DNA of 64,000 bases from Sphingopyxis sp. LC363 (GTDB lineage Bacteria > Pseudomonadota > Alphaproteobacteria > Sphingomonadales > Sphingomonadaceae). The stretch is from NCBI RefSeq assembly GCF_000756385.1, contig NZ_JNFC01000034.1, forward strand, positions 62,001-126,000. Reading direction: 5' to 3'. Below are positions 55,734 to 56,679 of this stretch, piece after piece. Under the pieces are notes generated by a model. It made no database searches and was not told the DNA's origin. It worked only from the letters and a program-made list of their open reading frames with translations. How positions within the stretch are numbered: the first letter of the stretch is position 1; each line of letters starts with the position of its first letter. Position numbers and translations under genes: made by a program.

Positions 55734-56110
55734 TGGTCTTTTCGTGTCCAAGTTTCCGGCCAGTAGTCGAAGTGGCCCAAGTGCTGGGTCGTGCGTTCGA
55801 CGGGATGGCATTTGACGATCGCGAACTGAGGCGGATCAGGAAATCCCGGCCAGAAATGTTCGCCGATTAAAAATATGTGTTCGCCGGATTGAGCGGCATA
55901 GTCCGGTTCGCCTTTGACACCTTCCAACGGCAGCCCGCTCTTCGAAGGATGGAGCCAGATGATCCGCTCACCCGTGAGGTCGAGAAATTCTTGAGCTGTA
56001 GCGAGATCCTGCTCATCCCACTCCGACCAATCCGACGAACCTTCGGGGCCGTAGTGTTCAGTCGGCTGCCAGTTGAAGGGACGTGTGTATTCGAAAAGAG
56101 CTTGTGTCAC
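55730..56110 (-). CDS. Uncharacterised protein inside the suf operon
   Basis: 126 residues from GTG 56110 (GTGA overlap with the DUF559 stop), stop overlapping the sufC start. It reads [20 protein letters not shown], then WSEWDEQDLATAQEFLDLTGE and SGEHIFLIGEHFWPGFPDPPQ: acidic, aromatic, soluble, no signal or cysteine cluster. I recognise no family. The tight coupling to sufC on both sides argues for expression. Its first codons resemble the first codons of DUF559 at the DNA level (see finding). Confidence 0.6.
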   Translation of the reverse strand: MTQALFEYTRPFNWQPTEHYGPEGSSDWSEWDEQDLATAQEFLDLTGERIIWLHPSKSGLPLEGVKGEPDYAAQSGEHIFLIGEHFWPGFPDPPQFAIVKCHPVERTTQHLGHFDYWPETWTRKDQ

Positions 56111-56161
56111 CCCACGCTCCCTTCAAGGCTGATGCCCAGCAATTTCTGCGCCTCGACCGCA
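56099..56161. repeat. Left copy of a direct repeat derived from the sufB 3' end
   Basis: This ~62-base stretch matches 56618-56679 in the same orientation with a one-base indel and scattered mismatches. On the minus strand it encodes the last 17 residues of the DUF559 protein, [17 protein letters not shown], its stop, and the first codons of the following ORF. Amino acids match the SufB end exactly while several codons differ. Confidence 0.8.
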
Positions 56162-56628
56162 TCAAGCCCCTCCCCTTCAGGGGAGGGGTTGGGGTGGGGC
56201 CTGTCCGCCTTGCGCAGCGCTTCGGAAATAAACGCCAGCACGCCATCCATATTCTGCATGACATCGGTGTTCGTCACCCGGATCACGCGAAATCCGTGGC
56301 CGCTTAGAATTTCGTCACGCAGCCGGTCCTTGGCTTCGTCATGCGTGTCGCCATCGACCTCGACGATCAGCTTCGCCGAAGGACAAACAAAATCCGCGAT
56401 AAAATAGCCGATCACTTGCTGGCGGCGAAACTTGAACCCGCCCAGCTGGCTGTTCGACAAATGCCGCCACAGCCGCTTCTCCGGCTCGGTCGGGTTGCGG
56501 CGCATGTCCGCCGCGCGGCGATGCAGCTCGGCGAGGCGTTCGGCCGAGAGGCCCCACCCCCTACCCCTCCCCTGAAGGGGAGGGGCTTGGGTCTGCTTCG
56601 CATGGTCGTTAAGGGTCAGCTGCGTCAC
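56107..56628 (-). CDS. DUF559 endonuclease-like domain protein
   Basis: 173 residues from GTG 56628, overlapping the sufB stop (GTGA). The DUF559 core, of the Vsr/restriction-endonuclease-like fold, is about 30-140: [60 protein letters not shown] and [20 protein letters not shown]; the E..D/ExK-like acidic residues are present. On both sides the chain is low-complexity sequence encoded by palindromic repeats: [15 protein letters not shown] near residue 20 and [16 protein letters not shown] near 150. The last 17 residues, [17 protein letters not shown], equal the SufB C-terminus. Its activity on DNA is unproven. Confidence 0.85.
56164..56588. mobile_element. Candidate DUF559 cassette bounded by inverted palindromic repeats
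   Basis: The arms are 56164-56201 and 56550-56588. One reads AAGCCCCTCC...GGGGTTGGGGTGGGGCC and the other its reverse complement with a one-base indel. Each contains a near-perfect 22-base palindrome (CCCCTCCCC, TGA, AGGGGAGGGG). They point toward each other just as in the gene-less paired repeats at 58124-58219 and 58762-58920, but here the ~350 bases between them are the DUF559 nuclease core. Direct copies of the sufB 3' end (56099-56161 and 56618-56679) lie outside. This looks like insertion with target duplication; no transposase is present. Confidence 0.5.
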
Positions 56629-56679
56629 CCGACCGACCCCTCAAGGCTGATCCCCAGCAGCTTCTGCGCCTCGACCGCA
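56618..56679. repeat. Right copy of the direct repeat, at the sufB 3' end
   Basis: The 3' end of sufB, its stop and the first codons of DUF559; matches 56099-56161. Either copy could be the original sufB end. See the left copy. Confidence 0.8.

What the first reader, a model, noticed from the sequence alone, without database searches (positions are those of the whole stretch)
56099..56679. Palindrome-bounded DUF559 nuclease cassette inside the suf operon, duplicating the sufB 3' end
Seen directly: between sufB and the next gene sits a DUF559 gene whose core lies in the loop of two inverted ~38-base palindromic repeats (56164-56201, 56550-56588). The same repeat type forms pairs without a gene at 58124-58219 and 58762-58920. 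Outside the cassette, ~62 bases of the sufB end are directly repeated, covering the stop and the first codons of the next gene. Thus SufB and DUF559 end with the same 17 residues, [17 protein letters not shown], but use different codons. Known: REP/REPIN elements are mobilised by RAYT transposases in some bacteria; DUF559 belongs to the Vsr-like nuclease folds. Inference: the palindrome pair and DUF559 form a mobile unit that rebuilds the reading frame of its target; the codon differences with no amino-acid change suggest the copies have been under selection. This is the strongest candidate for an undescribed system here.
Basis: partly seen in the sequence, partly recalled or inferred. Interest (0 to 1): 0.85.

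Follow-up and report, generated by a model that had tools for sequence, protein, structure and literature searches.

The report
Nuclease gene nested in palindromic DNA
Across many bacteria a small nuclease gene of unknown role sits inside a mirrored pair of short palindromes of a kind scattered through bacterial genomes with no known mover, which makes this gene a testable candidate for what spreads them.

Summary
A DUF559 (PF04480, Vsr-like PD-(D/E)XK) gene lies between two inverted palindromes in the suf operon. In the genus 115 of 124 DUF559 loci examined have such a pair, against 0 of 234 control windows. It recurs in the class (54 of 69), in other classes of the phylum (23 of 35) and in a named multi-phylum sample (59 of 80, two artefacts counted as misses). 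Palindrome type follows DUF559 clade (11 changes, shuffled 81.7). Gene-less palindromes of the window's type are commoner where the matching DUF559 is present (median 24 vs 1, one-sided p=1.5e-5). Y1 (RAYT-type) transposases are absent from the own genome and from 49 of 60 genus genomes. Many arms resemble the BoxC/PIT 'intrastrand triplex' motif, beside which no mobility gene was found in E. coli (PMC4666352). Best reading: DUF559 and its palindromes are one REPtron-like unit, and DUF559 is the likely mobiliser; that last step is inferred. The sufB-tail duplication is peculiar to this site. E. coli ycjD is not enclosed, no target duplication was seen, and the phylogeny-aware control was underpowered.

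The parts
56107..56628 (-). DUF559 ORF (173 aa, GTG start); nuclease domain about 56215-56526; both palindromes are translated ([11 protein letters not shown] / [11 protein letters not shown])
   Evidence: invariant residues E50, D79, D92, H96, D101 in an 18-sequence alignment
56553..56589 (.). upstream arm (gene orientation): palindrome 56564-56585 with inward G-rich tail; type T2
   Evidence: (I3)
56163..56199 (.). downstream arm: palindrome 56167-56188 with inward tail; type T2
   Evidence: (I3)
56621..56679 (.). sufB 3' end, original copy of the 59-nt direct repeat
   Evidence: D4
56103..56161 (.). second copy of the sufB 3' end, now the C-terminus of the DUF559 ORF; a duplication peculiar to this locus
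56625..58115 (-). sufB
   Evidence: SUFBD_core
58124..58219 (.). gene-less inverted pair of type T1 between rrf2 and sufB; a pair is at this site in 5 of 30 genomes
58784..58897 (.). gene-less inverted palindrome pair of another related type
   Evidence: I4

Best explanation
The window holds one member of a widespread class of element: a DUF559 (Vsr-like PD-(D/E)XK) nuclease gene enclosed by two inverted arms, each a hairpin plus an inward G-rich tail, many of them of the BoxC/PIT/intrastrand-triplex form. Shown: gene and arms occur together, arm type follows the protein's clade, and gene-less pairs of the matching type have the cassette's polarity and are commoner where the matching gene is present. 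Inferred: the nuclease recognises its own arm type (as hairpin or triplex on single-stranded or extruded DNA), nicks or cuts at the ends, and repair or replication copies short gene-less pairs to new sites, as RAYT is thought to do for REPINs. The cassette itself seems to move rarely: in most clades it stays at one site between housekeeping genes and is under purifying selection.
For: Enclosure: genus 115 of 124 vs controls 0 of 234; class 54 of 69 vs 0 of 133; further class loci 6 of 11 vs 0 of 22, other classes 23 of 35 vs 1 of 70; named set 61 of 80 by score, 59 with L333 (Ns) and L306 (poly-C) counted as misses, vs 3 of 302. Type and clade: 11 changes on the domain tree, least possible 9, shuffled mean 81.7. 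At the pdhC-lpd and nrdA-nrdB sites different subclades carry different arms. Dosage: DUF559 copies vs palindrome counts rho 0.77 over 60 genomes; median 70.5 palindromes in 52 genomes with DUF559 vs 9 in 8 without. By type: T2 palindromes outside the cassette, median 24 in 11 genomes with T2-DUF559 vs 1 in 49 others, one-sided p=1.5e-5; T1-DUF559 does not predict them, p=0.23. Polarity: 32 of 34 close T2 pairs entered from the capped list are +- as in the cassette. Insertion: a 96-bp T1 pair sits in frame in sufC of one genome and is absent at that point in 31 aligned loci. No Y1_Tnp in the own genome and in 49 of 60 genus genomes. dN/dS 0.07-0.29 in 16 groups. Best solved matches: a DUF559 protein (3hrl) and homing endonuclease I-Bth0305I (3r3p).
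Against: No experiment shows DUF559 moving anything. T2 palindromes are also common in some genomes where I saw no T2-DUF559 (outside-cassette counts G029 46, G031 35, G051 21), and genomes with T2-DUF559 also have more palindromes of other types (58 vs 30, p=0.03), so specificity is partial. The phylogeny-aware control has only 4 supported independent pairs: b goes the same way in 2.3-2.6 and the other way in 0.1-0.2 on average, median p 0.5. A blind prediction failed: the pair G038:C2:181271-181659 gave no DUF559 match and by eye holds another insert; by my count 8 of 9 pairs 300-500 bp apart in the capped listings do hold it. E. coli ycjD is not enclosed. 15 of 69 class loci, 5 of 11 further class loci and 12 of 35 loci of other classes fall below threshold. 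The tail mirrors the own stem in only 38-54% of arms (outward control 14%). DUF559 dS exceeds sufB dS in all 52 comparable pairs, so no recent spread. No target-site duplication was found.
Confidence: 0.6

Rival explanations
1. DUF559 is a homing-type gene that settles in, or targets, palindrome pairs which something else (replication slippage, another transposase) spreads; the palindromes are its landing site, not its product.
For: Sequence and fold nearest, outside DUF559 itself, to homing endonuclease I-Bth0305I; mostly one site per clade; at sufB 11 of 50 holders needing 10 changes on the best sufB tree; cassettes lie between conserved genes such as nrdA-nrdB, glyQ-glyS, trpB-trpA.
Against: Arm type follows DUF559 clade and gene-less palindrome numbers follow the matching DUF559, which a mere landing site does not predict; DUF559 dS exceeds sufB dS in all 52 comparable pairs.
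Confidence: 0.17
2. DUF559 is a host repair nuclease (VSP-like, as proposed for Caulobacter VsrA); palindromes gather beside it because it tolerates or processes them.
For: VsrA has a DUF559 domain and is tied to damage in cells lacking a cytosine methyltransferase (PMC12907096, passages); the spacing of the five residues proposed there equals that in the window protein.
Against: Patchy presence and 0-12 copies per genome in the genus; palindromes enclose the gene in a fixed inverted layout; arm type follows clade.
Confidence: 0.1
3. The palindromes act as transcriptional insulators or terminators that let a small gene sit inside operons.
For: Cassettes sit between adjacent housekeeping genes.
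Against: The arms match many gene-less copies in the same genomes; PMC4666352 cites earlier work finding no promoter or terminator activity of PIT elements; no palindrome matching the pattern was found in the 39 sufB-sufC intervals without the cassette, most of them filled by other small genes, apart from a degenerate remnant in G002.
Confidence: 0.06
4. The arms are moved by Y1 (TIRYT-type) transposases, and DUF559 is a passenger.
For: PMC3733652 section 16 reports Y1 transposases flanked by inverted repeats sharing GGGGWSAS, which could match the GGGGTGAG of BoxC-like arms. Genomes with Y1 hits have somewhat more palindromes (median 93 vs 50, p=0.08).
Against: No Y1_Tnp in 49 of 60 genus genomes, the own one included, although 40 of those 49 have at least 20 palindromes; the two strongest Y1 hits in the genus score only 8.5 and 9.5 for an inverted pair.
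Confidence: 0.07

Closest known systems
REPtrons / REPINs with RAYT (TnpA-REP) transposases
   Same: Inverted palindrome pairs, many gene-less copies, a type-matched nuclease gene with its own palindromes on both sides
   Different: The enzyme is a Vsr-like PD-(D/E)XK protein, not an HUH Y1 transposase; the palindromes carry no GTAG tag (by eye)
BoxC / PIT elements / intrastrand triplex motif TM (PMC4666352)
   Same: Arm layout: C-rich stem, loop, G-rich stem, short spacer, G-rich third tract; inverted pairs occur
   Different: That paper reports no mobility gene at the E. coli sites; here motifs of this form enclose DUF559. The genus types T1 and T2 are variants, not identical
Vsr-like (EDxHD, name recalled) homing endonuclease I-Bth0305I
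   Same: Nearest solved match outside DUF559 by sequence (0.0024) and fold (5.7e-5)
   Different: No intron or intein seen; palindromic ends; dispersed gene-less copies
TIRYT / TIRtrons (PMC3733652)
   Same: Nuclease gene between inverted repeats that also occur alone, some with GGGGWSAS
   Different: Y1 transposase; in this genus absent or not enclosed by such arms
VsrA of Caulobacter / YcjD of E. coli
   Same: DUF559 proteins
   Different: No link to palindromes in the passages read; ycjD is not enclosed by an inverted pair

Membership tests
REPtron (RAYT-REP) | HUH/Y1 transposase gene (PF01797) | tested here: not met
   0 hits in own genome; the cassette gene is PF04480
REPtron (RAYT-REP) | Gene flanked by palindromes that also occur as dispersed inverted pairs | tested here: met
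   shared subterminal sequence by eye
REPtron (RAYT-REP) | GTAG tag at the palindrome end | tested here: not met
   by eye: arms against the description in PMC3733652
BoxC/PIT/TM motif | C-rich stem, G-rich stem, G-rich third tract mirroring the stem (class II) | tested here: inconclusive
   mirror match >=0.85 in 38-54% of arms, outward control 14%; own stem 0.69-0.74 vs other stems 0.62-0.68. Against three TM sequences flanks score >=20 inward in 76 of 247, 39 of 137, 35 of 92, 65 of 160; outward 23, 16, 12, 23; shuffled 0
BoxC/PIT/TM motif | Forms a stable triplex in vitro | not testable with these tools
   reported for E. coli TM oligonucleotides in PMC4666352; not for these arms
Homing endonuclease element | Catalytic fold of the I-Bth0305I class | tested here: met
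Homing endonuclease element | Recent spread into empty alleles of one site | tested here: inconclusive
   patchy presence, but DUF559 median dS 1.25 vs sufB 0.36
Insertion sequence / MITE | Target-site duplication | tested here: inconclusive
   none at one sufC insertion nor beside cassettes outside sufB apart from L180, L265, L196; short ones could be hidden by species-level divergence
Vsr mismatch repair | Linkage to a cytosine methyltransferase and T:G nicking | not tested
   only PMC12907096 passages on VsrA
Known defence system | Full-length match to a defence family | tested here: not met
   only short partial matches, best DpdF 2.5e-6 over about 60 of 1078 positions

The most novel reading that the evidence does not exclude
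DUF559 is the mobiliser of BoxC/PIT-type palindromes across bacteria: a mobile-element class whose only enzyme is a Vsr-like nuclease acting on self-type hairpin or triplex ends, with gene-less pairs as its non-autonomous offspring and co-evolving recognition between nuclease clade and arm type.
Probability: 0.45. Interest if true: 0.95.

Novelty: new variant of a known kind. Interest (0 to 1): 0.82.

Why it matters
[quoted passage not shown] PMC4666352 reports finding no mobility gene around the E. coli sites. A conserved nuclease gene enclosed by arms of this form, with matched types, gives a concrete candidate and a simple test. If right, it adds a second enzyme class to palindrome mobilisation beside the HUH RAYTs and gives DUF559 (PF04480), still named as of unknown function in Pfam, a role to test.

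Tried and rejected
Rejected or failed: (1) sufB-tail duplication as the general insertion signature. A weak hint: the left (sufB) tail has a TCG serine codon in 7 of 11 holders and the right copy AGY in 7 of 8, which would fit a donor tail left and a recipient tail right (Fisher p=0.04 holders vs empties, 0.059 left vs right). (2) Chance flanking: control windows in every set. (3) Recent homing at sufB: dS too high. (4) A bare empty site with target duplication: at rrf2-sufB and nrdA-nrdB several non-holders carry another palindrome family instead. In one search the nrdB start was found in 11 of 30 loci and an intergenic region read in 10: DUF559 in 3 (G000, G024, G008), a palindrome dimer in 5, other sequence in 2. 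(5) The prediction that every gene-sized palindrome pair holds DUF559 failed once. (6) E. coli gave only proximity. (7) The swapped-flank control was spoilt by orthologous loci; the within-locus control was used instead. In one search five loci near contig ends were mis-indexed; one search corrects this. (8) Rows: in the genus 124 of 177 matches were examined, so a T2-DUF559 among the other 53 is not excluded; at sufB 50 of 60 genomes; at class level 69 of the listed matches; L140 has no type; L333 and L306 counted as misses. (9) Palindrome types: 100 of 124 rows were set by pattern, 24 checked or set by hand before the tree was made. (10) Two of my notes hold counts corrected here (12 sufB holders, really 11; 12 nrd loci parsed, really 11 located and 10 read).

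Full report
What is in the window. A 173-aa DUF559 ORF (PF04480, E=1.1e-34) lies on the minus strand between sufB and a small ORF without a Pfam match that precedes sufC. Its nuclease core sits between two inverted arms, 56163-56199 and 56553-56589, 37 nt and 92% complementary. Each arm is a palindrome plus a G-rich tail pointing towards the gene. A 59-nt direct repeat (85%) of the sufB end flanks the cassette. One correction: the gene-less pairs at 58124-58219 and 58784-58897 belong to related but different palindrome types.

It is not a single case. The own genome has six DUF559 loci; all six score 22.5 or more for an inverted pair, control maximum 12.5 over 70 windows. The genome has no Y1/RAYT match. 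In 60 genomes of the genus 52 have DUF559, 0 to 12 copies each. I examined 124 of the 177 matches: 115 have an inverted pair at score 16 or more, against 0 of 234 control windows from the same loci. Of the nine below, at least six show a short palindrome of the same style by eye.

It is not confined to the genus. In a class-wide draw 51 of 142 genomes have DUF559; of 69 loci examined 54 pass, controls 0 of 133. In a phylum-wide draw 108 of 299 genomes have it; of 46 new loci, 6 of 11 inside the class and 23 of 35 in other classes pass, controls 0 of 22 and 1 of 70. Passing records are titled Nitrospira, Omnitrophota, Gastranaerophilales, Chlamydiae, Doudnabacteria and Daviesbacteria among others. 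C- and G-rich palindromes are seen even in loci of 33-45% G+C, though a few passing pairs (such as L246) are not of this style.

Gene and arms belong together. On a tree of the DUF559 domain, built without the arms, ten palindrome types need 11 changes where 9 is the least possible and shuffled labels need 81.7. Part of this is orthology. Of 16 groups, 9 share both flanks in all members, 3 share them save one right flank, and 4 (T5, T6b, T7, T9) lie at more than one site or contain outliers. By both flanks the 124 loci fall into 25 groups, 12 of them single loci, some cut by contig ends. At the pdhC-lpd site subclades T3a, T3b and T4c alternate with two arm types; at nrdA-nrdB T5 and T4b. So arms diverge along with the protein at a fixed site, while one arm type such as T1 or T7 occurs at more than one site. 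Pfam confirms nrdA-nrdB, fabI-aroC, rph-rdgB, glyQ-glyS and trpB-trpA-like genes as neighbours; other gene names were read by eye.

Gene-less pairs look like the cassette without its gene. DUF559 copy number and palindrome count correlate over 60 genomes (rho 0.77), and the 8 genomes without DUF559 have a median of 9 palindromes against 70.5. By type: exact T2 palindromes outside the cassette have a median of 24 in the 11 genomes with a T2-DUF559 and 1 in the other 49 (one-sided p=1.5e-5); T1-DUF559 has no such effect on them (p=0.23). T2-DUF559 genomes also have more palindromes of other types (p=0.03), so specificity is partial; the T2 share of palindromes is 0.24 against 0.05. Of 34 adjacent T2 palindromes within 600 bp in the part of the capped list that I entered, 32 have the cassette's polarity; their gaps are 71-74 or 102-121 bp, and the two at 397 bp are DUF559 cassettes. 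Gene-less copies share subterminal sequence with the cassette (by eye). A 96-bp T1 pair sits in frame inside sufC of one genome and is absent at the same point in 31 aligned loci, without target duplication.

The enzyme. dN/dS is 0.07-0.29 in the 16 groups. Invariant residues E50, D79, D92, H96 and D101 (18 sequences) have the same spacing as the residues proposed for Caulobacter VsrA (PMC12907096, passages). The AlphaFold model is confident (pLDDT 92.5). Its only fold matches below 0.001 are the DUF559 protein 3hrl and the homing endonuclease I-Bth0305I; Vsr follows further down at 0.017. The sequence profile gives the same first two; its other hits are at chance level.

What the arms are. 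PMC4666352 (abstract, sections 3 part 1, 15, 18, 20 part 1 and passages) describes the BoxC/PIT/TM motif: C-rich stem, G-rich stem, third G-rich tract; 23 copies in E. coli MG1655 with five inverted pairs; many copies in over 260 genomes; no mobility gene found around the E. coli sites. Some DUF559 arms are near-identical in form, for example L183 and L362. Against three E. coli TM sequences flanks score 20 or more inward in 76 of 247, 39 of 137, 35 of 92 and 65 of 160 cases, outward in 23, 16, 12 and 23, shuffled in none; both arms reach 18 in 54 of 124, 20 of 69, 15 of 46 and 32 of 80 loci. The inward tail mirrors the own stem at 0.85 or more in 38-54% of arms against 14% on the outward side. 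Membership in the TM motif is therefore not claimed for every type.

E. coli and other named cases. E. coli DUF559 is annotated ycjD; a match is in 3365 of 5426 genomes. It is not enclosed. In a K-12 record a BoxC lies about 165 bp downstream, its tail pointing away, and a degenerate palindrome at the 3' end of ycjD; the sequence equals no. 9 (and 16, 19, 22) of Table 1 in PMC4666352. Among 13 named records 7 have an inverted pair at 16 or more, including Sphingomonas parapaucimobilis, where a T2 cassette again sits between sufB and sufC. Among 50,697 phage records 3 match a DUF559 query.

The sufB site. Of 50 sufB ends examined (of 60 genomes) 11 have the T2 cassette; the 39 others have other small genes, a remnant (G002) or almost nothing. 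Eight of the 11 carry a copy of the sufB tail beyond the cassette. The cassette needs 10 changes on the best sufB tree. I read the duplication as a local recombination by-product.

What is shown and what is inferred. Shown: enclosure, type matching, co-divergence, dosage association, polarity, purifying selection. Inferred: that DUF559 acts on the arms and spreads gene-less pairs. Results against: T2 palindromes in genomes without a seen T2-DUF559 and partial specificity, an underpowered phylogenetic control, a failed blind prediction, members that are not enclosed, and possible overlap with TIRYT repeats.

Print status. Searches and 105 of the held open-licence library (no bioRxiv) showed no paper linking DUF559 or YcjD to BoxC, REP or REPIN elements; most results were seen as listings only. 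DUF559 appears in 14 held papers, none on this by title and start of abstract. Other papers seen: PMC3733652 (passages, sections 6 and 16), PMC1189080 and PMC12817139 (passages). Subscription papers and preprints were not searched.

Noticed in passing
window 58124-58219 and the same site in other genomes (L053-L082): The rrf2-sufB junction holds a T1 pair in 5 of 30 genomes and, by eye, other palindrome families in several others: one site accepts different families.
   Followed up: partly
nrdA-nrdB intergenic region, L386-L415: Of 10 intergenic regions read, 3 hold DUF559 and 5 hold a dimer of another palindrome (for example CCCCGGCTTTCGCCGGGG).
   Followed up: partly
L074:3653-3748 (G052): A 96-bp T1 pair is inserted in frame inside sufC; the window's own SufC has a different extra stretch at about the same place (roughly 55460-55560, by eye).
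   Followed up: partly
sufB-sufC interval, 50 genomes: The interval directly after the sufB stop is hypervariable and filled by differing small genes.
   Followed up: no
window about 54822-54887: A further palindromic repeat (CCCCGGACTTGATCCGGGG type) lies at the start of sufD; a similar one is in the nrdA-nrdB gap of G025.
   Followed up: no
L417 (G038:C2:180700-182300): A palindrome pair is split by another insert with GGGTCAGGACCCATTAATTACCC-like inverted ends.
   Followed up: partly
L418 (Neisseria gonorrhoeae record): The DUF559 gene there has TM-like motifs on both sides in direct, not inverted, orientation (by eye).
   Followed up: no
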